Under the pieces are notes generated by a model. The model saw nothing but the letters and a program-made list of their open reading frames with translations, was not told where the DNA came from and made no database searches. The translations under genes were made by a program, and so were the position numbers. Source: Lactiplantibacillus mudanjiangensis (GTDB lineage: Bacteria; Bacillota; Bacilli; Lactobacillales; Lactobacillaceae). Taken from it: a stretch of DNA of 64,000 bases. The stretch spans positions 124,001 to 188,000 of the forward strand of contig NZ_BJDY01000004.1 of assembly GCF_005405385.1 (NCBI RefSeq), read 5' to 3'. Below are positions 10,944 to 62,849 of the stretch, piece by piece. Each line of letters starts with the position of its first letter. The first letter of the stretch is position 1.

Positions 10944-11461
10944 TTAAAGTGGCTTTTTAGCAATTATTGTTGATCTAATAAGTGTTCATCGGAAACTTGC
11001 CGCCTTACCGTTCGCCCACATTGAGCCGGAACGCTGTGGGTGGACCGGTTCAGCCAAAAAGCGGTCTGAACCGTCGTTTTGAACCGCAAAAATCCGCGTT
11101 TCAAAAGCGCCGAGCTCTAAGCGATAAATCGCTAAGAGCTTCCCACGGCTGGGCTCAATGTGGACTCGCTCTCGGCTATTATAGCGATTACTAGATCGAT
11201 CCGTATTCGCAAATTAGCCGGAATCAGGTAGTGGTGGCGCCGGCCGTGAAAACATCGTTAGTCCGGATGATTTTACCGGACTTTACGATGTGGACGACTT
11301 TTGAGACTAGTGGTTTTGACTAGGCTTAAAAGCGAGGTGGAAGCCTTTACTGTGGCTGGAACCGGTCCCCACAGCCGGCAGAATCACTGGCTGACGGAGG
11401 TGGCCAATTTAGCCTAGTACTGATATGAGTTCTACCACCATATTTAACTTTCAACCTCTAG
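10944..11461 (+). repeat. Structured dispersed repeat, copy 1 (full length)
   Basis: About 518 bp lying between the divergent VanX-like and MFS genes. Domain I: outer stem 11016-11027 with 11152-11163 (12 bp), second stem 11033-11040 with 11142-11149, then three hairpins at 11046-11073, 11077-11106 and 11113-11140. Domain II has an outer stem closing near 11225-11237 and 11381-11394, an inner stem GCCGGCCGTG/CACAGCCGGC, a strong hairpin (CATCGT...ACGATG, 11253-11290) and another at about 11297-11331. The right end is CTTTCAACCTCTAG (11448-11461), nearly the terminal repeat of copy 5; the left end (about 10944) is eroded. The reading frames that cross it, such as 10982-11194, are not convincing genes. 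Confidence 0.85.
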
Positions 11462-11529
11462 TTACTTTTCTTTTATTGTACGTAATTGATACAAATTTGT
11501 CTGATGAGATGACTTGGGGAACCTTTAAC

Positions 11530-11559
11530 TAGACATTTAGTTAACAAGCTTGGTAAGAT
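11530..11559 (+). promoter_or_regulatory. Probable promoter of MFS gene
   Basis: TAGACA (11530-11535), an 18-nt spacer and TAAGAT (11554-11559), downstream of repeat copy 1 and 42 nt before the start codon. Moderate match. Confidence 0.4.
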
Positions 11560-11600
11560 AGCAGCATTGTGGTTTAAAAAATTCGGAGAAGGTGAAGTTC

Positions 11601-12797
11601 ATGACGCGTCAAACCAAGCGGGCTATTTTTATTTTAGTTTTTAGTGAGTTTCTAGTTTGTTTAGGCATTAGTCTGGTTATTCCAGTGATGCCGTTTATTA
11701 AGAATGAGTTGCACTTAACGGCAACCGATATGGGGATTATGAACGCCTTGTTTGCGTTGGCGCAGTTTGTGGCTTCGCCAATTATTGGGCGTTTATCGGA
11801 TAAAATTGGTCGAAAACCAGTGTTAGCAACGGGCTTGTTTTTATACATGGTTTCTGAAGTATTATTCGCCTTAACTAATCAATTGTGGGTCTTTAATATT
11901 TCGCGGTTAGTCGGTGGGGTGTCGGCTGCTATGGTCGTACCAACGGCGATGGCTTTGGCTTCTGATATCACGACTAAACGGCAACGGGCTAAAGTTATCG
12001 GCTGGTTATCAGCAGCGTTTAGTGGTGGCTTGATCTTAGGCCCTGGGATTGGGGGCATCTTGGCAGGGATTAGTTATAAAACGCCATTTTGGGTAGCTGG
12101 GGCGTTAGGCTTAATTAGTGCGATTGTTTTAATTGTCCTATTACCGAGTGATAAAGATGTTTTGGCTGCTTCAGATTTGGAACCGGCAGCTGATGCCCAA
12201 GAGCCAGCTCATCATCCGATGTCACGAGCCTTTTGGACGGTCCCAATTATTATTTTATTTACGATGATCTTAGTCTCATCGTTTGGATTACAAGGCTTTG
12301 AAAGTATTTATAGTATTTATGTTAATGAAGTCTTCCACTTTAGTTTGAGTAACATTGCGTTAGTCTTGACCTTAAACGGGTTGATTTCACTTTTTCTACA
12401 AGTGGCACTATTCGATACGATGGTTCAACGCTGGGGTGAACGGCATGTGATTCGATTCTGCTTTGCGGCAGCCGCAATCTGTACGATTTGGATCACGCAA
12501 GCTCATACGAAGTGGGAAGTGATTGTGGCCACCTTAGTGATTTTCTCAGCATTTGATTTATTACGGCCAGCGATTACAACCTTGTTGACGAAAGCTAGTG
12601 CAAGCAATCAAGGCCTGATTAATGGGTTGAACATGTCACTCACGAGTGTTGGGAACATTGTTGGCCCGATTATGTCAGGGATGCTACTTGATATGAACTA
12701 CCACTATCCTTATTTAGTGGTTGCTGGATTCTTGATTGTGTCTTATTTAATGGCATTCATGTTACGTTATCCAGGCCAGAAACCGGCGAATAATTAA
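11601..12797 (+). CDS. MFS multidrug-type efflux transporter
   Basis: 398 aa with twelve predicted spans, in the plasma membrane. The first half carries motif A of drug:H+ antiporters, GRLSDKIGRKP (about residues 57-67), and motif C-like GLILGPGIGG in span 5, which is typical of exporters of the TetA/NorA type. The substrate cannot be told from sequence. ATG at 11601 is chosen because GGAGAAGG (11585-11592) is 8 nt upstream; the in-frame GTG at 11592 overlaps that RBS. It is a single-gene unit ending in a strong terminator. Confidence 0.88.
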   Translation: MTRQTKRAIFILVFSEFLVCLGISLVIPVMPFIKNELHLTATDMGIMNALFALAQFVASPIIGRLSDKIGRKPVLATGLFLYMVSEVLFALTNQLWVFNISRLVGGVSAAMVVPTAMALASDITTKRQRAKVIGWLSAAFSGGLILGPGIGGILAGISYKTPFWVAGALGLISAIVLIVLLPSDKDVLAASDLEPAADAQEPAHHPMSRAFWTVPIIILFTMILVSSFGLQGFESIYSIYVNEVFHFSLSNIALVLTLNGLISLFLQVALFDTMVQRWGERHVIRFCFAAAAICTIWITQAHTKWEVIVATLVIFSAFDLLRPAITTLLTKASASNQGLINGLNMSLTSVGNIVGPIMSGMLLDMNYHYPYLVVAGFLIVSYLMAFMLRYPGQKPANN

Positions 12798-12798
12798 C

Positions 12799-12835
12799 AA
12801 AACGCGACGTTACCTGCGGGTGACGCCGCGTTTTG
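12799..12835 (+). terminator. Terminator of MFS gene
   Basis: Long stem beginning AAAACGCG and ending CGCGTTTT, with a TGCG loop. Confidence 0.85.
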
Positions 12836-12903
12836 CTTGCAACGAGAATGGGTCTTTGCTAGAATTAATCAAATTTAGGTCAAAATGACGGGAGGTTGAT
12901 CGC

Positions 12904-13551
12904 ATGGGGATGCATCAATATTTACAAAGCTTAAGCAATTTAGAAACGATTCAACGGGCACCGGGATTTTTCAAATATCAAAATCATTCGGTAGCGGCGC
13001 ACTCTTTTAAAGTGGCAGAAGTCGCACAGTTTTTAGGCGATGTCGAAGCGCATAGTGGGCAAACCGTTAATTGGCGGGCGTTATATGAAAAAGCATTGAA
13101 TCACGATTATAATGAGCGGTTTATTGGTGATATTAAGACACCGGTAAAATATGCCACACCGTCCTTGCGATCAATGCTGGCCGATGTCGAGCAAAAATTG
13201 TCGCAAAATTTTGTTGAAAATGAAATTCCAACCGAATTTCAGGCCGATTATTTACGGCGGTTATCTGAAGGTAAGGATGAGACCCTGGAAGGGCAAATTC
13301 TCTCAGTTGCGGATAAAGTGGATTTGTTATATGAGTCTTTTGGTGAGATTCAAAAAGGAAATCCGGAGTCAGTTTACACGGATATCTATCGTGAAAGTTT
13401 ACGGACTATTGTGAGTTTCAAACAGTTAGCCAGCGTGCAGTACTTCTTAAAGGAAGTCTTACCAGAAATGTTGGCTGAGTCATTTATGAATCAAGATAAA
13501 TTACAAGCATTGACGAAACGAATTCTGAGTGACAATTCGCAATCCGTTTAA
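12904..13551 (+). CDS. HD-domain hydrolase (YfbR-like)
   Basis: 215 aa. All metal-binding residues of the HD superfamily are in place: H33 (VAAHSF), H67-D68 (LNHDYNE) and D137 (VADKVD). The arrangement is that of YfbR-type 5'-deoxynucleotidases, small cytoplasmic HD proteins acting on deoxynucleoside monophosphates; whether this one has that substrate is inferred. RBS GGGAGG lies 8 nt before the ATG. It stands immediately upstream of uvrB with an SOS-like box between them. Confidence 0.82.
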   Translation: MGMHQYLQSLSNLETIQRAPGFFKYQNHSVAAHSFKVAEVAQFLGDVEAHSGQTVNWRALYEKALNHDYNERFIGDIKTPVKYATPSLRSMLADVEQKLSQNFVENEIPTEFQADYLRRLSEGKDETLEGQILSVADKVDLLYESFGEIQKGNPESVYTDIYRESLRTIVSFKQLASVQYFLKEVLPEMLAESFMNQDKLQALTKRILSDNSQSV

Positions 13552-13554
13552 TGG

Positions 13555-13580
13555 CGAAAGTATGTTCGATGTGCTAAAAT
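13555..13580 (+). promoter_or_regulatory. LexA-like SOS box with overlapping promoter upstream of uvrB
   Basis: CGAAAGTATGTTCG (13555-13568) matches the Gram-positive LexA consensus CGAACN4GTTCG at all but one base. A TGC-extended -10 box TAAAAT (13575-13580) follows 6 nt later, so LexA bound here would block this promoter. uvrB is a standard member of the LexA regulon in Firmicutes. The uvrB start is 115 nt further on, beyond a terminator-like hairpin. Confidence 0.7.
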
Positions 13581-13601
13581 GAATAGCGGTTTTGTAGTTG
13601 A

Positions 13602-13631
13602 TAGGGAAGCAAGCAGCTTGCCTATTTTTTG
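13602..13631 (+). terminator. Intrinsic terminator-like hairpin inside the uvrB leader
   Basis: Stem TAGG-GCAAG/CTTGC-CCTA with a GAA bulge and a 3-nt loop, followed by TTTTTTG. It either ends transcripts from the HD gene or attenuates those from the LexA-controlled promoter just upstream. A second possible promoter (TTGAGC 13632-13637, 17 nt, TGATAA 13655-13660) lies after it. Confidence 0.65.
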
Positions 13632-13695
13632 TTGAGCAGCGTGAATAGAAACGCTGATAAATAAGTAAAAAGAGCACCTTGAAGGAGGAGTTACC

Positions 13696-15699
13696 TTGAT
13701 TGATCGGGTTGATAATAATCGGTTTGACTTAGTTTCAGACTACCAGCCAACGGGGGATCAACCGAAAGCGATTGAACAGCTGACGGCAGGCCTCAATGCT
13801 GGCGAAAAAGAACAGATCTTAATGGGGGCAACGGGGACTGGGAAAACCTTTACGATTTCCAATGTCATTGCCCAAGTGAATAAACCGACGTTGATTTTGT
13901 CACATAATAAGACGTTAGCCGGCCAATTATACGGCGAATTTAAGAAATTCTTCCCGAATAATGCGGTGGAATATTTTGTGAGTTATTACGATTATTATCA
14001 ACCCGAAGCGTATGTGCCTTCGAGTGATACCTATATTGAAAAAGATTCTGCAATCAATGATGAAATCGATAAACTCCGACATTCAGCGACCAGTTCGTTA
14101 TTGGAACGTAATGATGTCATTGTCGTTGCTTCTGTTTCCAGTATTTTTGGTTTAGGGGATCCGCACGAGTATCAAGATCATGTGGTTTCTCTACGTGTTG
14201 GGATGGAATTAGAACGCAATGACTTGTTACGGCGATTAGTGGATATTCAATTCGATCGTAACGATATTGATTTCCAACGAGGCCGGTTCCGAGTGCATGG
14301 TGATATCGTTGAAATTTTTCCAGCTTCACGTGATGATCATGCCTTGCGCGTGGAATTTTTTGGTGACGAAATCGATCGAATTCGTGAAATCGACGCGTTA
14401 ACGGGTGAAGTTGTTGGCGATCGTGATCATGTGGCGATTTTCCCAGCGACTCACTTTATGACTAATGATGACATCATGGAACACGCCATCAATGGGATTG
14501 AGCATGAAATGGAAGATCAATTGGCTAAGTTCACCAAGGAAGGCAAACTACTTGAAGCCCAACGCCTCAAGCAACGAACTACTTACGATATTGAAATGTT
14601 GCGGGAAATGGGGTATACCAGTGGAATTGAAAACTATTCGCGTTTTATGGATGGTCGAAAACCTGGTGAACCACCTTATACGTTACTCGATTTCTTCCCG
14701 AAAGATTTCTTAATGGTCGTCGATGAATCACATGTAACGATGCCACAAGTTCGTGGGATGTATAACGGTGACCGGGCGCGGAAACAAATGTTAGTGGATT
14801 ATGGTTTCCGGTTGCCAAGTGCCTTAGACAACCGACCATTAAAGCTTGAAGAAGTCGAACAACACATTAATCAAGTGGTTTACATGTCAGCGACACCAGG
14901 TCCTTACGAAATGGATCGGACCAAGCATGTGATTCAACAGATTATTCGACCAACTGGCTTGCTTGATCCAACCATTGATGTGCGGCCGATTATGGGTCAA
15001 ATTGATGATTTAGTTGGCGAGATTAATCAGCGAATTGAACGCGATGAACGAGTCTTTGTCACCACGTTAACTAAGAAAATGGCCGAAGATTTAACGGATT
15101 ACATGAAAGACCTCGGTATCAAAGTTCGTTACTTGCATAGTGATATCAAGACATTGGAACGGACCAAGATTATTCGTGACTTGCGACTAGGTAAATTCGA
15201 CGTCTTAGTCGGGATTAACTTGTTGCGGGAAGGGATCGATGTACCGGAAGTGTCATTAGTGGCGATTTTGGACGCGGATAAGGAAGGCTTTTTACGTAAC
15301 GAACGGTCATTGATTCAGACGATTGGTCGGGCAGCCCGAAACGAAAACGGGGCGGTCATCATGTATGCTGACCACACAACAGATTCAATGCAGGCTGCGA
15401 TCGATGAAACGGCGCGTCGGCGTCAGATTCAGGAACAATATAATATCGATCATCATATGACGCCACATACGATTAAGAAGTCAATTCCAGATCTGATTGC
15501 GTCAACGAAGACCACCGAAGATACTGGGAAGCAAGATGACTTCTTAGAAACTGACTTTGATGACATGACACACGAACAACAATTAGATATGATTAGTAAA
15601 CTTGAAGAACAGATGAAGACAGCGGCGAAGAAGTTGGACTTCGAACAAGCCGCAACCTTACGGGATACCGTAATGGAATTGAAAGCACAGATCAGCTAG
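13696..15699 (+). CDS. uvrB: Excinuclease ABC subunit B
   Basis: 667 aa, a full-length damage-recognition helicase of nucleotide excision repair. Walker A GATGTGKT is at 44-51, the beta-hairpin [12 protein letters not shown] at about 97-108, the DEAD-type VVDESH near 338, helicase motifs V/VI in the RecA2 half, and a C-terminal UVR motif ([18 protein letters not shown]) that contacts UvrA or UvrC. The TTG start at 13696 is fixed by AAGGAGG 8 nt upstream. uvrA follows after 11 bp with its own RBS, so uvrBA is one operon. Confidence 0.98.
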
Positions 15700-15710
15700 G
15701 AGGTCTTTCT

Positions 15711-18566
15711 TTGGCGAATGATAAGATTGTGATTCATGGCGCGCGCGCCCATAATTTAAAGAATATTGATGTGACGATTCCACGAAATAAGTTGGTCGTC
15801 ATTACGGGACTATCAGGTTCTGGGAAGAGTTCATTGGCATTTGATACCTTATATGCCGAAGGACAACGTCGCTACGTGGAGAGTTTATCGGCCTATGCAC
15901 GCCAATTCTTAGGCCAAATGCAAAAGCCAGATGTCGATTCAATTGATGGGCTGAGTCCCGCGATTTCAATTGATCAAAAGACGACCTCTAAGAACCCCCG
16001 TTCAACAGTTGGGACCGTCACTGAAATTAACGATTATTTGCGGTTGCTTTGGGCGCGGGTCGGCAAGCCGATTTGTCCTAATGATGGGACCCCGATTGCG
16101 AGTCAGACGGTTGAACAGATGGTTGATCGCGTTCAGAAGTTACCTGAACGCACGAAGTTGCAAATCTTGTCACCAATTGTCCGTCAAAAAAAGGGCGAAC
16201 ATAAGAAAGTCTTTGACAAGATTAAGCGTGAAGGTTTTGTCCGGGTTCGAGTTGACGGTGAGATTCATGACATCAGTGAAACGTTCGATCTTAACAAGAA
16301 CCAACAACACACGATTGAAATTGTCATTGACCGAATTGTGATTAAACCTGGCGATCGCTCACGGTTGTTTGATTCGTTTGAAGCGGCGTTGCGGTTGAGT
16401 GGTGGTTATGCCATTGCTGATGTTATTGGTGGTGAACCAATTCTGTTTTCTGAACACTATGCTTGTCCAGTCTGCGGATTTACTGTGGGTGAACTAGAAC
16501 CACGGTTGTTTTCATTCAATGCCCCACAAGGCGCTTGTCCTGATTGTGAAGGCTTAGGGATGAAGTTGGAAGTGGATGAAGACTTAGTGGTGCCTGATCC
16601 AAGCATGACATTAGCTGAGGGGGCTTTAGCCCCATGGAACCCAATCAGTTCCCAATATTATCCTGAATTATTGAAACAAGCCTGTAAACAATTAAAGATT
16701 CCGATGGATGTGCCATTTGAAGATTTATCAAAAGCTGATCAACAAACGATTCTATATGGCTCTAAAGGCAAAGAATTCCACTTCCATTATCAAAATGACT
16801 TTGGCGGTGTGCGTGATGTTGATGCCGTTTTTGAAGGGGTGATCAACAATGTTGATCGTCGTTACCGGGAAACCAATAGTGATTTCACGCGCGATGTGAT
16901 GCGGAAGTATATGACTGAACTGACTTGCCAAACGTGTCATGGGTTCCGATTAAATCGCAGGGCCTTGTCCGTTAAAGTAGCTGGTGAACACATCGGCACG
17001 ATTTCTGATGAAGCTATCGGTGACGAATTGGCGTTCTTTGACCAACTCACCTTATCTGATCAAGATTTAGTCATTGCCCAACCGATCTTAAAGGAAATTC
17101 GTGATCGTTTAACCTTCTTACAAAACGTGGGGTTAGCCTATTTGACCTTAAGTCGAGCTGCACGGACGTTATCTGGTGGGGAAGCCCAACGAATTCGATT
17201 AGCTACCCAAATTGGGTCTAATCTATCGGGTGTGCTCTACATTTTGGATGAACCGTCAATTGGGTTACACCAACGGGATAATGATCGGTTGATCGACTCA
17301 TTGAAGAAGATGCGTGATCTTGGGAACACCTTGATTGTCGTGGAACATGATGAAGATACGATGCGGGCGGCGGACTACATTATTGATATTGGGCCGGGCG
17401 CTGGTGAAAATGGTGGTGAAGTCATGGCTGCCGGGACACCAAAACAAGTGGCACGATCACGTAAATCATTGACCGGTCAATATTTGGCTGGTAAACGATT
17501 CATTCCGGTCCCAACTGAACGGCGAGCGGGTAATGGCAAGAAGATTCGGATTACCGGTGCGGCTGAAAATAACCTCAAGCAAATTGATGTCGACTTCCCA
17601 TTGGGTGAATTTGTCGTCGTAACTGGGGTTTCAGGTTCTGGTAAATCAACGTTAGTGAATGATATTTTAAAGCGTGCCTTAGCTCAAAAATTGAACCGAA
17701 ATTCTGAAAAACCAGGTAAATATAAGTCAATTAGTGGGGTTAAGAATATTGAACGCCTCGTCAATATTGATCAAAGTCCAATCGGGCGGACGCCACGGAG
17801 TAATCCGGCAACTTATACTGGCGTCTTTGATAATATTCGGGACCTATTTGCCCAAACCAATGAAGCTAAGTTACGTGGATATCAAAAGGGTCGGTTTAGT
17901 TTTAACATCAAGGGTGGCCGCTGTGAGGCCTGTCATGGTGATGGGATCTTAAAGATCGAAATGAACTTCTTACCGGATGTTTTTGTGCCATGTGAAGTTT
18001 GTCATGGGCAACAATACAATTCCGAAACATTGGAAGTTGAATACAAAGGCAAAAATATTGCGGATGTTTTGAAGATGACGGCGTCAGAAGCCGTGAAATT
18101 CTTCGAACCAATTCCTAAGATTCGACGCAAACTACAAACGTTAGTTGATGTTGGTCTAGGCTATGTCAAATTAGGCCAACCTGCGACAACTTTATCTGGT
18201 GGGGAAGCCCAACGGATGAAGCTAGCTTCCGAATTACACAAACAACAATCTGGGAAGAATTTCTATATTCTAGATGAACCGACGACTGGGTTGCATAGTG
18301 AAGATATTCGGCGGTTAATCGGTGTGTTGGAACGGTTAGTGGATGCCGGTAATACGGTCTTGATCATTGAACACAATTTAGACGTTGTGAAATCAGCGGA
18401 TCACCTGATCGACTTAGGTCCTGAAGGTGGTGCTGGCGGTGGGACCGTCTTGGCAACTGGGACGCCAGAAGAATTAGCAGCGGTACCAGAAAGCTATACC
18501 GGTCAGTATTTAAAGGCCGTTTTAGACCGGGATACAGCGCGGATGGCGGCTGCTACGACCAAATAA
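15711..18566 (+). CDS. uvrA: Excinuclease ABC subunit A
   Basis: 951 aa. ATPase that finds bulky DNA lesions and loads UvrB. Two ABC modules are visible: Walker [10 protein letters not shown] near 31-39 and GVSGSGKST near 640, each with its LSGGEAQR signature (about 487 and 827). Zinc-finger cysteines appear as CPVC...CPDC near 255-283 and CEACHGDG...CEVCHG near 740-765. The TTG start follows AGGAGG. No truncation is seen. Confidence 0.98.
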
Positions 18567-18576
18567 TGCTTAATTG

Positions 18577-18585
18577 TGCTACACT
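18577..18585 (+). promoter_or_regulatory. Extended -10 box of luxS
   Basis: TGC-TACACT (18577-18585), 40 nt before luxS; extended -10 form with no clear -35 box. Confidence 0.45.
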
Positions 18586-18624
18586 GAAGTGGTTAAGATT
18601 AATTCATAGAGGAGTGTTTTTGGA

Positions 18625-19101: not shown

Positions 19102-19122
19102 CTCATTAAAATTGTCTAAGCA

Positions 19123-19157
19123 AAGTGGACTGGCCTCTCGGCTGGTCCACTTTTTTT
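19123..19157 (+). terminator. Terminator of luxS
   Basis: AAGTGGAC...GTCCACTT stem extended by GGCC/GGCT pairing with a TCTC loop, then seven T. Confidence 0.93.
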
Positions 19158-19167
19158 GTGGCCTATT

Positions 19168-19698
19168 TTAGAGATTAAAAGTTAAGTATAGTGGTAAAAG
19201 CCGTACTAGTATTGGTTTGAGTTAGGCTAAATTAACCACCTACGTCAGCCAGTGATTCTGCCAGCTGTGGGACCGGCTCCAGCCAAAGTGCGGGCTTCCA
19301 CCTCGCTTTTAAGCCTAGCTAAACCCGCTAGTCTTAAAAGTCGTCCACATCGTAAAGTCCGGGAAAATCACCGGAATAACGATGTCGTCACGGCCGGCGC
19401 CATCACTGGCTGACTCCGGTTATCATGCGGATGCTAGTTAATTAGCAATCACCATCATAACCGAGAGTGAGCTCACATTGAGCCCAGCCGTGGGAGTCTC
19501 TTAGTAGAGACTGGCGTTTTTGAAACACGGGTTTAGTGGTTCAAAACGACGGTTCAGACCGCATTTTGGCTGAACCGGTCCGCCCACAGCGTTCCGGCTC
19601 AATGTGGGCGAACGGTAGGTGGCAAGTATCACTATTTTTGATCGATGAACACTTATTATATTAGTGATTATTGCTAAGACGTAACGTTTAACTGTTAG
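19168..19698 (-). repeat. Structured dispersed repeat, copy 2 (full length, inverted)
   Basis: About 531 bp between luxS and argG, in the opposite orientation to copies 1 and 3. The outer stem of domain II is a perfect 13-bp pairing here (GTCAGCCAGTGAT with ATCACTGGCTGAC). The last hairpin of domain I has lost its upper part, but its base still pairs (AGTCTCT/AGAGACT, 19495-19512). The terminal repeats are recognisable but degenerate (TTAGAGATTAAAAG at 19168-19181; CGTTTAACTGTTAG at 19685-19698), and no target duplication remains, which suggests an old insertion. The minus-strand reading frame 19501-19731 is an artefact of the element. Confidence 0.85.
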
Positions 19699-26913: not shown

Positions 26914-27464
26914 CCTCCGGTTGAAAGTTGCTTACTAAACTTTATTGTAACGGTCTCGTCAGGTTAACACTAGCAAAAATGATCACGCTTGCCACCTGCC
27001 GTTCGCCCACATTGAGCCGGAACGCTGTGGGCGGACCGGCTCAGCCAAAAAGCGGTCTGGCCCGTCGTTTTGAACCACCCAACCCGTGTTTCAAAAACGC
27101 CAGTCTCTAAGCGATAAATCGCTAAGAGGCTCCCACGGCTGGGCTCAATATGAGCTCACTCTCGGCTAGAATAGTGATTACTAACTAATTAGTATCCGTA
27201 ATCTAACCGAAGCCAGTCAGTGATGGCGCCGGCCGTGAAAACAGCGTTAGTCCGGGTGATTTTTCCGGGCTTACGCTGTGGACGACTTTTGAGACTAGTG
27301 GTTTGGGCTAGGCTTAAAAGCGAGGTGGAAGCCCGCGCTTTGGCTGGAACCGGTCCTCACAGCTGGCAGAATCGCTGACTGGCGTAGGTGATCAATTTAG
27401 CATAACTTAAGTCAATTCTAGCAAATCTTTTACGGTCATTTAGTTAATTAATAAAAATAACTAG
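26914..27464 (+). repeat. Structured dispersed repeat, copy 3 (full length)
   Basis: About 550 bp between the divergent YjbR-like and permease genes, in the same orientation as copy 1. Left end ...GGTTGAAAG (26919-26927) matches the terminal repeat of copy 5; the right end near 27464 is degenerate. Domain II outer stem: 27212-27224 with 27371-27383, 13 pairs including one G-T. Compared with copy 2, two of these pairs are changed on both sides. The hairpin at 27242-27280 has CAGCGT/ACGCTG where copy 1 has CATCGT/ACGATG, another two-sided change. The reading frame 26928-27110 is not a convincing gene. Confidence 0.85.
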
Positions 27465-32091: not shown

Positions 32092-32163
32092 TGCGTCTGG
32101 AGGGAATCGAACCCCCATCTCAAGAACCGGAATCTTACGTGCGATCCATTACACTACAGACGC
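32092..32163 (-). tRNA. tRNA-Arg (anticodon CCG)
   Basis: A 72-nt cloverleaf on the minus strand including the discriminator base. Acceptor stem GCGTCTG/CAGACGC; T-arm GGGGGTTCGAATCCC-type with TTCGAAT; anticodon arm TAAGA-TTCCGGT-TCTTG, so the anticodon is CCG (plus-strand 32128-32130), reading the arginine codon CGG. CCA is not encoded. It has its own terminator. Confidence 0.95.
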
Positions 32164-54696: not shown

Positions 54697-54708
54697 TTGT
54701 TTGTTAAG

Positions 54709-54756
54709 CGAGAGAAACTTCAGAGCTTGAACTTTGAAGTTTCCCTCGTTTTTTTT
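54709..54756 (+). terminator. Terminator of ung-pta
   Basis: CGAG-GAAACTTCA/TGAAGTTTC-CTCG stem, eight T. Confidence 0.9.
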
Positions 54757-54777
54757 ATAATAAAGAGAGTTTAATTA

Positions 54778-55260: not shown

Positions 55261-55266
55261 GAGGCG

Positions 55267-55782
55267 ATGGCAGCTGATGTCGTGGAGATTAGACCAGCAG
55301 AAGCAACTGATGCCGCACAATTGTTAGCGTTGCTGAAGCAATTGGCAACGGAATCGAACACATTTACGGCAGATGATGGTCTGGGGGAACTGAGTGAAGC
55401 TGATGAGCGCAGCCAGATTGAACAGATTACGAAAACAACCACTAACATTATCATGGTGGCGGCATTAGGTGATGAGTTGCTAGGTGTCGGTACCGTACAA
55501 GCAACGGATGATTTAGTTCATGATCAAGGTGAAGTGGGCGTGGCAGTCCTAAAAACATACTGGGGCAATGGTCTTGGAACCGCACTAGTTGAAGAACTGC
55601 TACACTGGGCCAGCGATTACAGTACATTGGCACAATTGTGTTTAACGGTGCAGATGCGTAATCAACGCGCGATTAAGTTATATCAGCATCTAGGTTTTCA
55701 AACGGTGACAACTGAGCCTTATGCAGTGATTGATCCGACCGGGATGTCGGTACAAGCCATTGATATGGTATTAGCTGTCTAA
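55267..55782 (+). CDS. GNAT family N-acetyltransferase
   Basis: 171 aa. Acetyl-CoA loop YWGNGLGTALVEELL near 98-112 and the C-terminal MRNQRAIKLYQHLGF near 130-144. Located immediately after tsaE, where many Firmicutes have a RimI-like acetyltransferase; this sequence is longer than RimI and resembles the more general RimJ/L-like group, so a ribosomal target is not assured. Confidence 0.85.
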   Translation: MAADVVEIRPAEATDAAQLLALLKQLATESNTFTADDGLGELSEADERSQIEQITKTTTNIIMVAALGDELLGVGTVQATDDLVHDQGEVGVAVLKTYWGNGLGTALVEELLHWASDYSTLAQLCLTVQMRNQRAIKLYQHLGFQTVTTEPYAVIDPTGMSVQAIDMVLAV

Positions 55783-55783
55783 A

Positions 55784-55827
55784 AAAAGCACGAGATGATC
55801 GACAACTGTCGGTGATCCCGTGCTTTT
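55784..55827 (+). terminator. Terminator of tsaE-GNAT
   Basis: AAAAGCACG-GAT-ATC.../...GATC-CGTGCTTTT stem with short T-run. Confidence 0.85.
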
Positions 55828-55837
55828 GTGAGTGTTG

Positions 55838-56104
55838 GTTATAGTTGAAGATCAACTTACCACCTACCGTTCGCTTACATTGAGCCGGAACGCTGTGGGT
55901 GGACCGATTCAGCCCAAAAGCGGTCTGAATCGTCGTTTTGAACCACCCAACCCGTGTTTCAAAAACGCCAGGCTCTAAGCGATAAATCGCTAAGAGCCCC
56001 CACAGCTGGGCTCAATGTGGACTCACTCCTGGTTAGGCTAGTAATTACAACCTTAATTAACATGCACGTTGTAACTGGTCTTCATAGCCGGTAGAATCAC
56101 GAGC
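55838..56104 (+). repeat. Structured dispersed repeat, copy 4 (internally deleted)
   Basis: About 267 bp between the convergent GNAT and exonuclease genes. Domain I is complete: outer stem, second stem now a perfect GCTGTGGG/CCCACAGC, hairpin CGATTCAG/CTGAATCG (a two-sided change from CGGTTCAG/CTGAACCG), and GGCTCT/AGAGCC in the last hairpin. Nearly all of domain II is missing; only its last piece (CCGGTAGAATCACGAGCT) is left. Domain I thus survives on its own. Confidence 0.8.
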
Positions 56105-56112
56105 TAGCGGTC

Positions 56113-56658
56113 CTAGCCTTGTACCCGGACAAATGGTTTTAATCGTTCGGTGCCGAATTGATTAGCTTCTTGCAATAAAATGTTGGCACAAGCTAGACTA
56201 TCATCTAAAGCATTGTGGTGATGTTCTAGCTCAATATCTAGTGCGCGACACATGGTATCGAGTTTATGGTTAGGCAATTCTGGAAAGAATTTTTTACTGG
56301 TTTTAACGGTGTCTAGGGATAGATATTCTGGCGCACCGATGCCATAATGAGCCAAAGTTTGCCGCAAAACCCCCGTATCAAATGGCGCGTTGTGGGCAAT
56401 CACTAAGCGATCACGCTTAAAGAATGGCGCGATATGTGCCCAGACGGCCGGAAACTTCGGCGCATCGGCGACATCTTCAGCGTGAATGCCATGAATTTGG
56501 ACATTACGCCAGAAAAAGTCGGTTTCAGGTTTGATCAACGTATAAAATTCATCGACAACTTGGCTATCACGAACAATGGTCAAGGCTAACGAACAAGCAC
56601 TGTCGCGTTTCGCACTAGCTGTTTCAAAATCCATCGCAACAAAGTTCAAAGTAGTCAC
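56113..56658 (-). CDS. DnaQ-like DEDDh 3'-5' exonuclease
   Basis: 181 aa. ExoI MDFETA with D10 and E12, ExoII AHNAPFD near 88-94, ExoIII HHNALDDSLAC near 146-156 (His and Asp). It resembles the epsilon-type exonuclease domain, without polymerase sequence, so it is a stand-alone proofreading or repair nuclease. The end of the gene abuts repeat copy 4, and its last codons (VRVQG) lie close to the element. Confidence 0.9.
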   Translation of the reverse strand: MTTLNFVAMDFETASAKRDSACSLALTIVRDSQVVDEFYTLIKPETDFFWRNVQIHGIHAEDVADAPKFPAVWAHIAPFFKRDRLVIAHNAPFDTGVLRQTLAHYGIGAPEYLSLDTVKTSKKFFPELPNHKLDTMCRALDIELEHHHNALDDSLACANILLQEANQFGTERLKPFVRVQG

Positions 56659-56731
56659 TCATTTCTGTTTAGATATAGGAGCCTTCATCATACCGAGATT
56701 GTGCAGTAGATTCAAGCTAACGGTTTGGCGG

Positions 56732-57487
56732 TTACAGTCGAATATCAAGTTCGACTGGACAATGGTCGGAACCGGTAATGTCAGTTAAAATACGGGCGTT
56801 CATTAAACGATCAACTAGACGGTTAGACGTGATGAAATAATCAATTCGCCAACCGGAATTGTTCGCGCGTGCTTGGCCTCGGTAGCTCCACCAAGAGTAA
56901 ATTTCGGTTTGATCAGGGTAGAAGTGACGGAACGTATCGGTGTAGCCACTGTCTAGTAACGTATTAAACTTAGCCCGTTCTTCATCAGTGAAGCCCGCGC
57001 TTTGATGATTGGTCCGCCAATTCTTTAAATCAATATTTTCGTGAGCGACATTTAAATCACCGCAAAAAATAACCGGTTTGTTGGCGTCTAAACCATTGAT
57101 ATAAGCGAGAAAAGCTGTCTCCCAAGTTTGGCGATAAGCCAAACGTTTGAGTTCGCCACCCGAATTTGGGGTGTAACACGTGATAAAATAGTAGTTAGGA
57201 TATTCTAGCGTAATCACGCGGCCTTCGGTGTCATGTTCAGGCACGCCAATCCCGTAAGTGACAGCTAAGGGTTCGCGCTTAGTGAACACGGCGGTCCCAG
57301 AATAACCTTTCCGTTCAGCATAATTCCAATATTGATGGTAACCAGGTAAGTCGAGGTCGATTTGACCAGCTTGCAGCTTGGTTTCTTGAATCCCAACAAT
57401 ATCGGCGTCTAAGGTTTCAAAAGTGGTTTTAAAGCCATGTTTAACTGCGGCTCGTAAGCCATTAACGTTCCACGAAATAAATTTCAT
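56732..57487 (-). CDS. exoA: Exodeoxyribonuclease III / AP endonuclease
   Basis: 251 aa. EEP fold: N-terminal SWNVNGLRA, IQETKLQ with metal-binding Glu near 35, GDLNVAHENIDL near 142-153, and C-terminal SDHCPVELDI. Cuts at abasic sites in base excision repair, complementing Ung encoded nearby. The DnaQ-like gene lies downstream on the same strand, 73 bp away. Confidence 0.96.
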   Translation of the reverse strand: MKFISWNVNGLRAAVKHGFKTTFETLDADIVGIQETKLQAGQIDLDLPGYHQYWNYAERKGYSGTAVFTKREPLAVTYGIGVPEHDTEGRVITLEYPNYYFITCYTPNSGGELKRLAYRQTWETAFLAYINGLDANKPVIFCGDLNVAHENIDLKNWRTNHQSAGFTDEERAKFNTLLDSGYTDTFRHFYPDQTEIYSWWSYRGQARANNSGWRIDYFITSNRLVDRLMNARILTDITGSDHCPVELDIRL

Positions 57488-57569
57488 CAGTGGTGTTCCA
57501 CCTTTCTAAAGAAAAATCATTATTAACTTAATTGTACCGCATTCCGCGGCTAAAAATGGAGGATTTGAC

Positions 57570-58472
57570 ATGTTAAAAATTGGTGTTCTTGGATTAGGAA
57601 ATATTGCACAGAAGGCTTATTTACCTGTAATGGCTGCGATGCAAGACGAGTATGACTTTCACCTAACGACCCGTAATCCTGAAAAGCGACAAGCACTGGC
57701 AGCTAAATATGGGTTTACTCATACGCACGAAAGTCTGGATGACTTGTTAACCGTGCAACCGGATGCGATTTTTGTGCATACACCAACATCAACCCATGCG
57801 GCAATTATTAAGCAATTGTTGTTAGCTGGTGTTAATGTCTACGTGGATAAACCGGTTGATACGGATGTGCAGGTTGTTCAAAGCTTATATGATTTAGCAG
57901 CTGCTCGACACTTAATGTTGACTTGTGGGTTTAATCGACGGTTTGCCCCGTTGAATCAACAACTTAAGGCATTGCCAGACAAGCGTTTTATTACGGCTGA
58001 AAAAGTCCGTGAAACTGGTGGGCAAGATATCGAAACGGCAGTCTTTGATTTGATGATCCATACGGTTGATACCGGCCTATTCCTATTAGATGAACCGTTA
58101 GAAACCACTGGTGGTCGGATTGTGTCGGCTGAACCTGGTCAATTAGGGCAAGGCTACTTTACCGCGCGGACGGCTCATGAAGAGTTACAAGTGGTGACGA
58201 ACATGTTTGGCGGTGTTAATTTGGAACAAACAACGGTACAGACAACGGCCAAGCGGGCTACGGTGACCGATTTGAGCAGCTTAACTACCTATCAAACGGC
58301 GAAAACCCAAACAACGACGTTCCCAGACTGGGAACCAACGCTTGAAAAACGTGGCTTTGCACCGTTGATTCGTGCCTTTCTAACGGCCGTAGCGACTCAT
58401 GGTCAAAACCCAGTTGACCCGGCTTCAGCGATTACGAGTCACGCGGTATGCCGTCATTTATTAAGCAACTAA
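57570..58472 (+). CDS. Gfo/Idh/MocA family oxidoreductase
   Basis: 300 aa. N-terminal NAD(P) Rossmann fold GVLGLGNIAQKAY near 5-17; the family EKP-type motif is VDKPVD near 90-95 with its Lys; the C-terminal alpha/beta domain follows. The sugar or inositol substrate is not identifiable from the sequence. A clear start with TGGAGG upstream; divergent from exoA. Confidence 0.88.
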   Translation: MLKIGVLGLGNIAQKAYLPVMAAMQDEYDFHLTTRNPEKRQALAAKYGFTHTHESLDDLLTVQPDAIFVHTPTSTHAAIIKQLLLAGVNVYVDKPVDTDVQVVQSLYDLAAARHLMLTCGFNRRFAPLNQQLKALPDKRFITAEKVRETGGQDIETAVFDLMIHTVDTGLFLLDEPLETTGGRIVSAEPGQLGQGYFTARTAHEELQVVTNMFGGVNLEQTTVQTTAKRATVTDLSSLTTYQTAKTQTTTFPDWEPTLEKRGFAPLIRAFLTAVATHGQNPVDPASAITSHAVCRHLLSN

Positions 58473-58476
58473 AACG

Positions 58477-58485
58477 TGCTATCAT
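58477..58485 (+). promoter_or_regulatory. Extended -10 box before murB
   Basis: TGC-TATCAT (-10 at 58480-58485), directly after the oxidoreductase gene, giving a murB leader of about 110 nt. Confidence 0.5.
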
Positions 58486-58501
58486 TAATAAATAGCCGAA
58501 G

Positions 58502-58557
58502 GTGCGCCAACAGTCAGTCGGTTCCATTTAACGTTGACAACTCGACTCTTGGCACAC
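58502..58557 (+). promoter_or_regulatory. Long hairpin in murB 5' leader
   Basis: GTGCGCCAA (58502-58510) pairs with TTGGCACAC (58549-58557), and AGTCG-GTT (58516-58523) with AAC-T-CGACT (58539-58547), around a 15-nt loop. It has no T-tract, so is not a terminator. It matches no riboswitch I recognise. Confidence 0.45.
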
Positions 58558-58600
58558 GCTTATTGGCATGAAATTGTAAACCTGAAAGGAATCTCAACTT

Positions 58601-59500
58601 ATGATGCAAGATGTGTTGGCCACTTTTCCAGCCATTGAAATTAAAAAAGATGAATCATTAAGTCATTATACGAATACGAAAACTGGGGGCCCGGCGGATT
58701 ACGTCGCTTTCCCGAAATCAATTAGTGAAACCAAAGCCTTGTTGGAATATGCAGATGCCCAACAAATTCCTGTAACTGTTATTGGCAATGCCAGCAACCT
58801 GATCGTTAAGGATGGTGGTATCCGTGGGTTGACGTTAATCTTGACTAAGATGAATCAAATTCATGCGAGCGATCATCAAGTCGTTGCCGAAGCTGGGGCA
58901 GCGTTGATCGATGCCACTAAAGCGGCTTGTCATGCGAGCTTAACCGGGTTGGAATTTGCCGCTGGTATTCCTGGGAGTGTTGGCGGTGCGATCTTTATGA
59001 ATGCCGGTGCTTATGGTGGTGAGATCAGTGAAGTTGTGGCTGAAGTCACCGTTTTAACAGCTGATGGTCAGCTCAAGACGTTGTCGAATGAAGCGCTAGA
59101 TTTTGGCTATCGCCACAGTACGGTGCAAGATTATCATGACACAGTTGTTTCGGCGACCTTCAAATTAAAGTCAGGGGATCAAACGAAGATCCAAGCACGG
59201 ATGGATGAGTTAAACTTCTTACGGGCATCAAAACAACCGTTAGAATGGCCATCTTGTGGGAGTGTCTTTAAGCGACCAACCGGCTACTTTACTGGTAAAC
59301 TAATTCATGATGCTGGACTACAAGGTACTCGTGTTGGTGGTGCCGAAGTTTCTAAGAAGCATGCGGGCTTCATTATTAATGTCGATCACGCCACGGCTAC
59401 TGATTATATGGAAATGATCCATCATATTCAGACGGTCGTATTTGAAAAATTTGGTGTCCACCTCGAAACTGAAGTTCGGATTATCGGGGAAGACGCTTAA
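58601..59500 (+). CDS. murB: UDP-N-acetylenolpyruvoylglucosamine reductase
   Basis: 299 aa. FAD enzyme that makes UDP-MurNAc for peptidoglycan. FAD-binding [10 protein letters not shown] near 60-69, [20 protein letters not shown] near 125-144, and the catalytic part with SCGSVFKRP (Ser about 225) and C-terminal ETEVRIIGE. Length fits the short Firmicute MurB. ATG at 58601 has AAAGGAATC upstream; the next codon is also ATG. Confidence 0.97.
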
Positions 59501-59530
59501 TCAATTGAACAAAGGAGGCAACACTGTTAA

Positions 59531-61663
59531 ATGCCACTTATTGAATTAGTTATTTTATTGGCATGTTTGGTGCTGCTGTCGAATGTTTTAAGCCACTATC
59601 TAGTCGCAATCCCGGTCAGTTTGATCCAAGTCGGGCTGGGCCTAGGGGTGGCTTTATTATTAAACGTACAAGTGGAGTTACAGACGGACTGGTTTATGCT
59701 CGTCTTTATTGCCCCAATGTTGTACAACGATGGCAGACAATTTCCCAAACGTGAGCTCTGGGAATTACGGGGGGCAATTTTCGCTAATGCAATTGTCCTA
59801 GTCTTTATTACCACCATTTTGGGCGGTTTCTTAATTCATGTGCTGATTCCAGGCATTCCACTGGCAGTCAGCATTGCGTTAGCTGCTATCTTGTCGCCAA
59901 CCGATCCAGTAGCGGTGCAGTCGATTTCTGAAGGAGTTAAACTCCCCAAAGAAATTTTGCATCTGGTCAGTGGTGAAAGTTTGATTAATGACGCTAGTGG
60001 GCTGATTGGCTTTAAATATGCCCTAGCTGCAGCCGTTACTGGGACATTTGCGCTCGGTAAAGCGGTTGGCGACTTTTTCTATATTAGTTTGGTCGGTTTA
60101 GCCGTCGGTTTGGCATTAATGACGTTGATTCAACTGATTCGTGATTTACTTCGACGTGAAGGCATCAACGATACGGTGTTTAATGTCGTGTTACAAATCC
60201 TAACGCCATTTGCCATTTACTTTATTGCTGAAGAATGGTTCCATGCTTCTGGTGTGGTGGCCGTCGTAGCTGCTGGTGTCTTGTCCCATGTGCAAAACTC
60301 ACATGAAGTCGAAGATGCCCCTGAACTACGGTTAGTGACTGAAAAAGTTTGGAATATTATTGTTTACTTATTAAACGGAATTGTCTTTTTGATTTTGGGG
60401 ATTGAACTGCCAGTGGCAACCAAAGCCACGATCGAAGGTAACCATACCAACACGTTGCATGCTGTTTTTGACGTGTTGATTGTCTGGGGCATTCTCTTGT
60501 TAATTCGAGTGGCTTGGACTTATGGCTACATGTTAATTATTTGGTTACGTGATCACCAAAAGACGCGGCCTAGCTTGCGGACGGCGGCCTTATCTGGATT
60601 GTCAGGTGTTCGTGGTGCCATCACGATGGCTGGGGTCTTTACGATTCCAACGGTGATTGCCAGTGGTGCGGCCTTTCCTGAACGATCATTAGTGCTGTTT
60701 ATTGCGGCGGGGGTCATCATTGTTAGTTTGGTTGCGGCGGCCGGTATTTTGCCATTGATGGCGGCTAAGTCGATCCCATTGATTACACGGGGCTCAAGTT
60801 TAGACGAAGATGATGCGGTGATTGCGGCGGGGCCAGATGACGACGATGTTCCAGATCCAGCGACACCGCAACAGTTGACGTATAAACAAGCACGGATCTA
60901 TATTCTGCAGTTGGCAGTCCGCAACATTGAAGAACATCGGCGGCCTGAAAACCAACGGGCAGCTTATGATTTGATCTTAGATCAACAATTTCAAATTCGG
61001 CGTTTGGAAGTCGCATCGCAAACGGAAGACGAATTGCAACCGATGCTGACGGATGAAATGCAGTTACGGTTAGTCGCCTTAGCTGGTGAACGTCAAGCGG
61101 TTCAACAAATGGTGGCTGATCACAAGGTTTCAAAACTAGCGGCCCAAAATTACTTACGTCGTATTGATCAACGGGAGCAACGTTTATCACAAGCGGCACA
61201 TAAACCAGGTTTACCAACGGTGCGTTCGTTGCGGTTGATGTTTAATCGGGCCATGCAAGGGTTACGGTTGTGGTTAGCACCAGCGGATAGCGATCAATTA
61301 CGGGCTGAGCAGTTGGTCATTCAACGCGAAGCTTCGAAAGCGGCAATCAAGGCGCTGTCACAATACTTGAAGCAAGCTAGTGTGGATGAACAACAATTTG
61401 ATCGCCAAGCGTTATATCACTTGATTGTGCATTACCGAAATCGAATTGAAAGTGCTAAACCGGGCCAAAGTGTCTCCCGTGCGGATTATGAGCGGCAAAT
61501 TCAAAAGTTGCGGATTAAGAGTCTGGGTGCGGAACGAGCAGGGGTTCAACATTTATTGGAAAGTGGTCAGATTAGCATTCGAACAGCCGCGCGCTTACGG
61601 CAGTTTATCAACTATTCAGAAAATTTATTAATGTTAAATGATGGCGAAATTGATGACGATTAA
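59531..61663 (+). CDS. NhaP-type Na+(K+)/H+ antiporter (CPA1)
   Basis: 710 aa. About twelve spans in the first 420 residues, with the ion-binding segment LSPTDPVAVQSI near 119-130 and GESLINDASG near 150-159, as in NhaP/CPA1 exchangers. A cytoplasmic tail of nearly 290 residues follows, helical and rich in Gln/Arg, presumably regulatory. Starts 31 bp after murB with AAAGGAGG. Confidence 0.92.
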   Translation: MPLIELVILLACLVLLSNVLSHYLVAIPVSLIQVGLGLGVALLLNVQVELQTDWFMLVFIAPMLYNDGRQFPKRELWELRGAIFANAIVLVFITTILGGFLIHVLIPGIPLAVSIALAAILSPTDPVAVQSISEGVKLPKEILHLVSGESLINDASGLIGFKYALAAAVTGTFALGKAVGDFFYISLVGLAVGLALMTLIQLIRDLLRREGINDTVFNVVLQILTPFAIYFIAEEWFHASGVVAVVAAGVLSHVQNSHEVEDAPELRLVTEKVWNIIVYLLNGIVFLILGIELPVATKATIEGNHTNTLHAVFDVLIVWGILLLIRVAWTYGYMLIIWLRDHQKTRPSLRTAALSGLSGVRGAITMAGVFTIPTVIASGAAFPERSLVLFIAAGVIIVSLVAAAGILPLMAAKSIPLITRGSSLDEDDAVIAAGPDDDDVPDPATPQQLTYKQARIYILQLAVRNIEEHRRPENQRAAYDLILDQQFQIRRLEVASQTEDELQPMLTDEMQLRLVALAGERQAVQQMVADHKVSKLAAQNYLRRIDQREQRLSQAAHKPGLPTVRSLRLMFNRAMQGLRLWLAPADSDQLRAEQLVIQREASKAAIKALSQYLKQASVDEQQFDRQALYHLIVHYRNRIESAKPGQSVSRADYERQIQKLRIKSLGAERAGVQHLLESGQISIRTAARLRQFINYSENLLMLNDGEIDDD

Positions 61664-61675
61664 TTAATTTACTTA

Positions 61676-61703
61676 TTGCAAAGTAATAGTTCTCGGTTAT
61701 AAT
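61676..61703 (+). promoter_or_regulatory. Promoter of the MarR gene
   Basis: TTGCAA (61676-61681), 16 nt, perfect TATAAT (61698-61703). The leader has an inverted repeat TTGGTT/AACCAA (61776-61790) that could be an operator. Confidence 0.7.
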
Positions 61704-61803
61704 AATGTTAGAATAGTATTTAGGGTAAATGATTAAAAATTGCAATTAGTTACCAGTCTTAGACGGGATTGATTTGGTTATAAACCAAGCGGGGGGATAT
61801 ACC

Positions 61804-62310
61804 ATGACAGAAACAGAGATTCATGAACAATTCGTTGAAACTTATATGCATATCTTGAAATATATTGGTGATTTTGTATCCGTACCAACACGGCCATATA
61901 AAATCACTTTTGAGGCGTACGTTGTGATGCGAATGATCGCGACGAGCAAGGACCCATTGACTTTGGTTAAAATTGCCAATGCGCAACACGTTTCACGGAG
62001 TGCAATTGCTCGGCAGATCAATGTTTTACTTGATTTAAAGTACATTGATCAAACGACGAATACTCATGATCGACGTATTAAGTACCTGTCATTGACCCCA
62101 GATGGTTTACGTGTTGAACAAGCAATTGATGAAGCGTCCGAAAAACGATTCCACCAGTGGTTACAAGTTTATGGAGAACAACGTGCTGATGATACGTTAC
62201 GCTATATTACGGATGCTGAAAAGAAAGCCACAGCGTTAGGGTTTAGCGGCTTTAGTGGGTTGCACGATAAGCGGAGTTCACATAAGACTTACAGTGATCC
62301 TGAATTTTAA
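61804..62310 (+). CDS. MarR family transcriptional regulator
   Basis: 168 aa. Winged helix-turn-helix: recognition region VSRSAIARQINVLLDLKYI near 58-76 and wing with NTHDRRIKYLSLTPDG near 82-97 (DxRxxxxxLT pattern). No neighbour is an obvious target. ATG at 61804 has GGGGGG upstream; an in-frame codon at 61774 lacks an RBS. The gene ends 4 bp before repeat copy 5, just before its 8-bp direct repeat. Confidence 0.9.
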   Translation: MTETEIHEQFVETYMHILKYIGDFVSVPTRPYKITFEAYVVMRMIATSKDPLTLVKIANAQHVSRSAIARQINVLLDLKYIDQTTNTHDRRIKYLSLTPDGLRVEQAIDEASEKRFHQWLQVYGEQRADDTLRYITDAEKKATALGFSGFSGLHDKRSSHKTYSDPEF

Positions 62311-62314
62311 AAAA

Positions 62315-62849
62315 CTAAAGGTTGAAAGTTAAGTATGACGGTAAAAGCTTTACTATAATTGACTTAAGTTATGCTAAATTGATCACCTACGCCAGTCAGC
62401 GATTCTGCCGGCTGTGGGGATCGGTTCCAGCCGAAGTACGGGCTTCCACCTCGCTTTTGAGCCTAGTCAAAACCACTAGTCTCAAAAGTCGTCCACATCG
62501 TAAAGTCCGGGGAAATCACCCGGACTAACGATATTTTCACAGCCAGCGCCATCACTGACTGGCTCCGGTTGTATTGCAACTACCAATTCACCATCATAAC
62601 CGAGAGTGAGTCCACATTGAGCCTAGCCGTGGGAGGCTCTTAGCGATTTATCGCTTAGAGACTGGCGTTTTTGAAACACGGGTTTAGTAGTTCAAAACGA
62701 CGGTTCAGACCGCTTTTTGGCTGAACCGGTCCGCCCACAGCATTCCGGCTCAAGGTAGGCGAACGGCAAGGTGGCAAGTATGACTAGTTTTGATCGATAA
62801 ATGCCTATCATATCAACGATTATTGCTAAAAATAGCTTTCAACCTTTAG
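62315..62849 (-). repeat. Structured dispersed repeat, copy 5 (full length, inverted, best-preserved ends)
   Basis: 535 bp with perfect 14-bp terminal inverted repeats CTAAAGGTTGAAAG (62315-62328) and CTTTCAACCTTTAG (62836-62849), flanked on both sides by TTAAAAAA (62307-62314 and 62850-62857), an apparent 8-bp target duplication. Internal structure as in copies 1-3; the inner domain II stem is GCTGGCTGTG/CACAGCCGGC. The domain I outer stem has lost some pairs (CCTACCTTGAGCC). It lies between the convergent MarR and DUF1361 genes. It encodes no transposase. Confidence 0.88.

What the first reader, a model, noticed from the sequence alone, without database searches (positions are those of the whole stretch)
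10944..62849. Five-copy family of about 0.5-kb intergenic, protein-less, highly structured elements
Copies at 10944-11461, 19168-19698, 26914-27464, 55838-56104 (deleted) and 62315-62849 occur in both orientations and in divergent, convergent and co-directional gaps. All full copies share the same order of inverted repeats, which fold into two multi-branched domains, each closed by a long stem and holding several hairpins. No protein is plausible: the frames that cross the copies (for example 10982-11194 and 26928-27110) lack RBS and differ mainly where pairing is kept. At about one copy per 13 kb here, the genome may contain many. I do not recognise it as an IS, REP/BIME, CRISPR or known large ncRNA.
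Basis: partly seen in the sequence, partly recalled or inferred. Interest (0 to 1): 0.92.

Follow-up and report, generated by a model that had tools for sequence, protein, structure and literature searches.

The report
Jumping elements with paired RNA folds
The five repeats are copies of a small jumping DNA element of lactobacilli that carries no gene but two back-to-back copies of a strongly conserved RNA-like fold for which I found no earlier description, and many related genomes hold more than a hundred copies of that fold.

Summary
The repeats are real and far more numerous than five. A covariance model (R1) of the fold finds 9 modules in the window and 35, in 22 clusters, in a 400-kb sample of the genome: about 290 modules, 180 elements, extrapolated. 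They are mobile: well-kept copies end in CTAAAGGTTGAAAG...CTTTCAACCTTTAG, and 19 of 33 end pairs 300-800 bp apart have an exact 7-9 bp target duplication (0 of 12 other spacings). A relative has an intact 1565-bp IS4-family insertion sequence with the same ends, so these are MITE-like, probably moved in trans. The interior is a divergent pair of one ~155-185-nt module. Covariation is very strong: 28 of 40 pairs change on both sides in 23 sequences. G-U exceeds A-C 366:45, pointing to RNA of one strand. The module is in 19 of 21 genus genomes and 83 of 301 sampled family genomes; outside the family one weak hit. No Rfam match. In L. fabifermentans the ends are gone, yet at least 150 modules remain, most with their own stem sequence. 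The function is not shown; I favour a read-through insulator.

The parts
10944..11461 (+). copy W1: right end kept with 1 mismatch (11448-11461), left end not recognisable
11008..11175 (-). W1 module m1 (R1 core hit 11042-11146 on -, 63.3 bits)
11218..11400 (+). W1 module m2 (R1 core hit 11246-11368 on +, 86.4 bits)
19168..19698 (-). copy W2, both ends degenerate (4 mismatches each)
19239..19419 (-). W2 module m2 (core 19270-19391, 90.6 bits)
19461..19615 (+). W2 module m1 (core 19490-19581, 51.6 bits)
26914..27464 (+). copy W3, left end degenerate (4 mismatches), right end not recognisable; used as the genome query
26999..27165 (-). W3 module m1 (core 27033-27136, 47.3 bits)
27207..27388 (+). 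W3 module m2 (core 27235-27356, 100.3 bits)
55838..56104 (+). copy W4, truncated: only module m1 left, no recognisable ends
55867..56032 (-). W4 module m1 (core 55901-56005, 57.8 bits)
62307..62314 (.). W5 left target duplication TTAAAAAA (overlaps the stop codon of the ORF 61774-62310)
62315..62328 (.). W5 left terminal inverted repeat CTAAAGGTTGAAAG
62386..62568 (-). W5 module m2 (core 62418-62540, 89.9 bits)
62600..62766 (+). W5 module m1 (core 62629-62732, 53.7 bits)
62836..62849 (.). W5 right terminal inverted repeat CTTTCAACCTTTAG
62850..62857 (.). W5 right target duplication TTAAAAAA

Best explanation
Shown by computation: the copies are non-autonomous transposable elements of about 520-547 bp with 14-bp terminal inverted repeats and 7-9 bp target duplications; the same ends bound an IS4-family insertion sequence in a relative. 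Each full element holds a divergent pair of one folded module (long closing stem, hairpins P1, P2, P3, conserved motifs GCGAGG, GACCGC, TTTGGC, CCGGTCC), and the fold is maintained by compensatory change and by a strong preference for G-U over A-C, i.e. on one strand. Inferred: the IS4 transposase moves the elements in trans, and the module acts as RNA in read-through transcripts. Because the two modules point outwards, a transcript entering from either side always ends its passage with one module in the folding (sense) orientation. I think this module shields the end of the element and the neighbouring gene from read-through (pausing, processing or RNA-end protection), so that insertions at gene ends are tolerated and mobile; in lineages such as L. 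fabifermentans the module outlived the transposon ends and was kept copy by copy.
For: Ends and duplications. IS4 partner; broken relic of it in the window's genome, L144/L161. Divergent order: 36 of 95 clusters are '-+', none is '+-'. Covariation. G-U against A-C: 366:45 in 150 rows, 194:4 in L. brevis rows and 48:15 in L. fabifermentans rows. Enriched between convergent genes, 28 of 84 against 71 of 426 adjacent ORF pairs, p 0.0008. Variable site between species: modules in the gap behind one orthologous gene in 4 of 21 genomes. Modules without ends: L. fabifermentans has 3 end matches (control 3) but at least 150 modules, with cis stem pairing far above trans.
Against: No expression data, no promoter above chance and no intrinsic terminator in the two element regions scanned, so an RNA role rests on sequence evolution alone. 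In the window's genome private mutations show hardly any G-U preference (25:18, p 0.36) although shared ones do (162:42), so copies may not be kept as RNA after insertion there. The intact IS (L162) shows no exact target duplication, and the one with an exact duplication (L163) has a broken frame. Transposition in trans was not observed. The insulator role itself has no direct test.
Confidence: 0.68

Rival explanations
1. The module is an independent RNA class with a host function of its own (for example a trans-acting or protein-binding RNA, or an RNA-processing site) that was captured and spread by an IS4-type MITE.
For: In L. fabifermentans modules persist in at least 150 copies without the transposon ends, and for 19 of 22 copies the best partner of the 5' stem arm is its own 3' arm although arms are only 41% identical between copies; flanks outside the modules are unrelated (0 of 120 pairs). 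A lone structural relative sits in another family of the order, G420. A dimer sits between the same genes in G005 and G017 with 45-47% identity, all four modules strongly folded, z -6.3 to -10.0.
Against: 2 of 21 genus genomes have none, so it is dispensable; copy number varies from 17 to at least 150 per genome with a hit; gene positions vary between species; no transcription evidence.
Confidence: 0.3
2. The structure acts as single-stranded DNA or as a cruciform in transposition, for example as a transposase or host-factor site.
For: The fold is shared by mobile copies, and selection is visible on shared but hardly on private mutations in the window's genome, as expected if only moving lineages are selected.
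Against: A cruciform exposes both strands, so G-U and A-C should be equal; they are 366:45. The IS4 element with the same ends has no such module. Modules persist where the ends are gone.
Confidence: 0.17
3. Neutral MITE debris: covariation arises from template-switch correction of imperfect palindromes, not from selection.
For: Long near-perfect stems are prone to such correction; private mutations are near neutral with respect to pairing.
Against: Correction yields Watson-Crick pairs and should not favour G-U over A-C on one strand; conserved loop motifs are not explained; modules carry fewer private changes than the subterminal parts, 128 of 13885 against 101 of 5941 sites, p 6e-6, although looser alignment of the subterminal parts may contribute.
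Confidence: 0.1

Closest known systems
BOX, RUP and SPRITE repeats of Streptococcus pneumoniae (PMC3049150; abstract and passages seen)
   Same: Numerous intergenic, tightly folded, probably non-autonomous mobile repeats, enriched between convergent genes; BOX is modular and some are transcribed.
   Different: BOX and RUP are much smaller, AT-rich MITE types restricted to a few streptococci per that paper; here two ~155-185-nt multi-hairpin modules stand divergently in one element, with covariation across genera and other ends.
IS4-family insertion sequences of the ISTeha4 type
   Same: Ends of the same design: CTAAAACTTGAAAG in ISTeha4, CTAAACCRTGAAAG in plasmid relatives, and exactly CTAAAGGTTGAAAG in the IS of G004.
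   Different: The elements here have no transposase, and the IS has no module.
NEMIS/Correia, ERIC, RU and CIR repeats (PMC2229807, passages seen; partly recalled)
   Same: MITE-like intergenic repeats whose RNA structure can affect adjacent transcripts.
   Different: Mostly single hairpins of 100-200 bp (recalled); no module of this architecture.
Large structured bacterial RNAs such as GOLLD, ROOL, OLE, HEARO (recalled; Rfam searched)
   Same: Multi-branched conserved fold with strong covariation.
   Different: No Rfam hit in the window or the nine loci tested; here the unit is a dispersed mobile repeat at very high copy number.

Membership tests
MITE (non-autonomous DNA transposon) | terminal inverted repeats | tested here: met
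   14-bp ends; 132 places with at most 1 mismatch against 0 for the reversed pattern; perfect in W5 only within the window
MITE (non-autonomous DNA transposon) | target-site duplication | tested here: met
   19 of 33 end pairs 300-800 bp apart have an exact duplication of 7-9 bp, 0 of 12 pairs at other spacings; 14 of the 33 show none
MITE (non-autonomous DNA transposon) | no transposase gene, related autonomous element with the same ends | tested here: met
   no ORF beyond shuffled level; IS4 element with identical ends in G004
MITE (non-autonomous DNA transposon) | moved in trans by that transposase | not testable with these tools
   needs a transposition assay
MITE (non-autonomous DNA transposon) | AT-rich, free of conserved internal function | tested here: not met
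   module cores have 46-66% G+C and strong conserved structure
IS4 insertion sequence | encodes an IS4-family transposase | tested here: not met
   no ORF; true of the partner IS only (NF049925, E 2.1e-144)
Rfam family (release 15) | match at gathering score, or E up to 2 with lax filters | tested here: not met
   window: only a tRNA; nine loci: a T-box and a sub-threshold viral motif, neither on a module
BOX/RUP streptococcal repeats | boxA/B/C or RUP sequence | not tested
   their sequences were not compared; architecture differs
ISfinder-listed MITE | entry in ISfinder | not testable with these tools
   ISfinder is not held

The most novel reading that the evidence does not exclude
The module is a new class of structured bacterial RNA, present in hundreds of dispersed copies in many Lactobacillaceae chromosomes, that spread as the cargo of an IS4-type MITE and then took on (or always had) a function that keeps each copy folded on its own, even after the transposon ends have decayed: a family-wide, transposon-seeded RNA system.
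Probability: 0.3. Interest if true: 0.93.

Novelty: new variant of a known kind. Interest (0 to 1): 0.76.

Why it matters
Bacterial MITEs are usually taken as debris. Here a protein-less mobile element carries a large RNA fold under demonstrable structural selection, takes up about 3% of the genome at the extrapolated copy number, and is spread over 12 of 40 sampled genera of a family important for food and health. It makes a concrete question testable: does a non-coding transposon spread because of its RNA, and can such an RNA outlive the transposon and become part of the host? It is also an unannotated factor in every transcriptome and in engineering of these strains.

Tried and rejected
Known RNA family: Rfam gathering scan of the window and lax scan of nine loci gave nothing on the modules. 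Protein-coding element: rejected. Plasmid or phage origin: no match for the window element in plasmids or phages, none for a L. brevis element in plasmids or phages, none for a L. herbarum element in plasmids, no exact core pattern in viral contigs. The species with high copy numbers may be rare in those collections, so this is weak. Own promoter or intrinsic terminator: nothing above shuffles in two element regions. Module inside the IS: none in five IS loci. Pfam on the 76-aa relic: no hit; the intact relative was needed. Base-exact empty site for W5: relatives too diverged; only a by-eye comparison of G013 (filled) with G002 (empty). Literature: ten searches and passages of four papers gave no description of this family; in PMC2267715 the only Lactobacillus family seen (Lac-1 of L. 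johnsonii) is inside coding genes. Subscription journals and preprints are not held, so absence from print is not shown.

Limits of the counts: R1 was built with 9 of 23 seed rows from G005, so high scores there are partly by construction; A2 is fitted to R1. Genome searches score a capped number of candidates (150, 12, 32-40) and use stricter filters above 40 genomes, so they are lower bounds. One search used 22 of the 25 L. fabifermentans rows of A2, 14 own m2 copies and 28 L. brevis modules chosen by me; in own and L. brevis sets the own arm was best partner in only 5 of 14 and 9 of 28. One search used rows typed in above about 47 bits; weaker and end-cut rows were dropped. The flanks were cut at different offsets for the two species (8 and 19 elements).
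Full report
OBSERVATION. Repeat search finds the five copies and their inverted counterparts. With copy 3 as query the own genome gave 41 matches out of 40 scored of 227 first-look candidates.

MOBILITY. Aligned copies share the ends CTAAAGGTTGAAAG and CTTTCAACCTTTAG, and the flanks of many copies repeat 7-9 bases exactly. Over all loci then fetched, 19 of 33 end pairs 300-800 bp apart have an exact duplication of 7-9 bases and 0 of 12 at other spacings; 15 of the 19 are from the window's genome, 3 from Levilactobacillus brevis CD0817 and 1 from L. herbarum. The end, with at most 1 mismatch, has 132 places in the genome against 0 for the reversed pattern. Smaller derivatives of 193 and 377 bp also carry duplications. 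At the site of copy 5, 4 of 21 genus genomes have a module in the gap behind the orthologous gene and 17 do not.

SOURCE OF THE TRANSPOSASE. One orphan end of the window's genome (L144) borders a relic ORF; a 48-aa piece of it finds five genomes of 21, one with an intact frame. That locus, L162 of G004, is a 1565-bp insertion sequence, 1370-2934, with both ends identical to those of the elements and a 451-aa transposase matching NCBIfam NF049925 'IS4 family transposase' at E 2.1e-144. It shows no exact target duplication, while the related L163 does but has a broken frame. More distant relatives on plasmids have ends of the same pattern, e.g. CTAAAACTTGAAAG in ISTeha4. No module lies in the five IS loci. 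That the IS moves the elements in trans is an inference from the ends.

THE MODULE. Folding of modules from five genomes shows one architecture: a long closing stem, hairpin P1, a short stem P4 and hairpins P2 and P3 with conserved motifs. In 23 sequences aligned by MAFFT (9 from G005, 7 from G007, 4 from G000, 2 from G002, 1 from G011), 92.9% of cells pair and 28 of 40 pairs change on both sides; no one of 500 shuffles reaches any of the five measures and slid partners fall to 29-44% paired. In 150 model hits 38 of 40 pairs change on both sides (fitted alignment). G-U and U-G cells number 366 and A-C and C-A 45. DNA-level pairing of both strands would make these equal, so the selected molecule is one strand, most simply RNA; the model's own strand choice may add a little to the bias. 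The other strand folds less well in most examples, not all (three of four with a small lead for the sense strand, one reversed).

ARCHITECTURE. Of 95 clusters of hits, 36 are '-+', none '+-', 55 single and 4 other. The modules thus point outwards. Two of 95 overlap an ORF above 150 aa. Clusters lie between convergent genes in 28 of 84 cases against 71 of 426 adjacent ORF pairs, p 0.0008.

DISTRIBUTION. In the family sample 83 of 301 genomes and 12 of 40 genera at E 1e-4. In the order sample, besides family members, one genome of another family, G420, has one weak hit (E 1.6e-6) whose fold shows the same plan. In the class sample only the own genome matched, 1 of 299. An exact core pattern finds 76 stretches in named genomes, of Levilactobacillus, Lactiplantibacillus, Secundilactobacillus, Companilactobacillus, records named Lactobacillus sp. 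and metagenome-assembled genomes, none in viral contigs. A 400-kb sample of the own genome holds 35 modules in 22 clusters, 13 of 20 stretches having any; this extrapolates to about 288 modules and 181 clusters, about 3% of the genome at 0.54 kb each.

WHERE DOES SELECTION ACT? In 40 copies of the window's genome, private changes in stems give G-U 25 and A-C 18 (p 0.36), with 21 other single breaks, 8 double changes that pair and 2 that do not; shared changes give 162:42 (difference p 0.006). Private changes are not significantly rarer in paired than unpaired sites (78 of 9474 against 50 of 4411, p 0.09). So recent copies look nearly neutral after insertion, and structure is kept in lineages that spread. 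Yet modules have fewer private changes than the subterminal parts (p 6e-6), which may be mild selection or alignment noise. L. fabifermentans tells another story: 3 end matches against 3 in the control, but at least 150 modules, sharp module borders with unrelated flanks (0 of 120 flank pairs similar against 210 of 703 in the window's genome), and stems that pair in cis (-39.9 kcal/mol) but not in trans (-16.7), the own arm being best in 19 of 22 with 41% identity between arms. There each copy must have kept its pairing over long times, or arrived by another route. A divergent dimer lies between the same genes in G005 and G017; the two are only 45-47% identical and the G017 modules lack P2, so a shared old insertion or two separate ones are both possible.

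FUNCTION. No promoter above chance and no intrinsic terminator is seen in the two regions scanned. A divergent pair means that read-through from either side leaves the element through one sense module. With the place at gene ends this suggests an insulating or RNA-end role that makes insertions harmless and keeps the transposon ends free of transcription. This is inference. Rivals are an independent RNA function, a DNA role in transposition, and template-switch artefacts; the last two are disfavoured by the G-U bias.

NOVELTY. As a mobile repeat it is MITE-like, akin in habit to pneumococcal BOX (PMC3049150, abstract and passages). The module has no Rfam match, and ten literature searches found no description, within a library of open papers only. 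I rate it a new variant of a known kind, with a 0.3 chance that the module deserves the rank of a new RNA class with a function of its own.

Noticed in passing
L144:301-1000 and L161 (G000:C2:537758 onward): Relic of the IS4-family partner element in the window's genome, with one intact end and a 76-aa ORF remnant.
   Followed up: yes
L138:1501-1599 (G420, another family of the order): A single, divergent module-like fold between a short gene and a gene that looks like an oligopeptide-transport permease; it may show that the RNA is older than the MITE.
   Followed up: partly
L230, 300-700 bp before citC (G017): Divergent pair of modules that lack hairpin P2 but keep P1, P3 and the closing stem: a second subtype that R1 scores poorly (32-37 bits), so copy numbers are underestimated.
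   Followed up: partly
L179 downstream of the orthologous gene (G005); L035 near its 3' end (G011): Long stem structures with similar outer borders but without the P2-P3 core, possibly deletion forms of the module.
   Followed up: no
L155:301-493, L152:3338-3714, L159:3492-3714: Short end-bounded derivatives of 193, 377 and 223 bp; the first two with exact target duplications.
   Followed up: partly
L229 upstream of the citC-like gene (G004): The corresponding gap holds what looks like a TnpB gene of an IS200/IS605-type element (by eye, no search).
   Followed up: no
window 17127-17210 and 18150-18233: 84-nt direct repeat, 70% alike, inside the 951-aa ORF 15711-18566; looks like the two ATPase signature motifs of a UvrA protein (by eye).
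   Followed up: no
window 32092-32163 (-): tRNA gene, the only Rfam match of the window.
   Followed up: no
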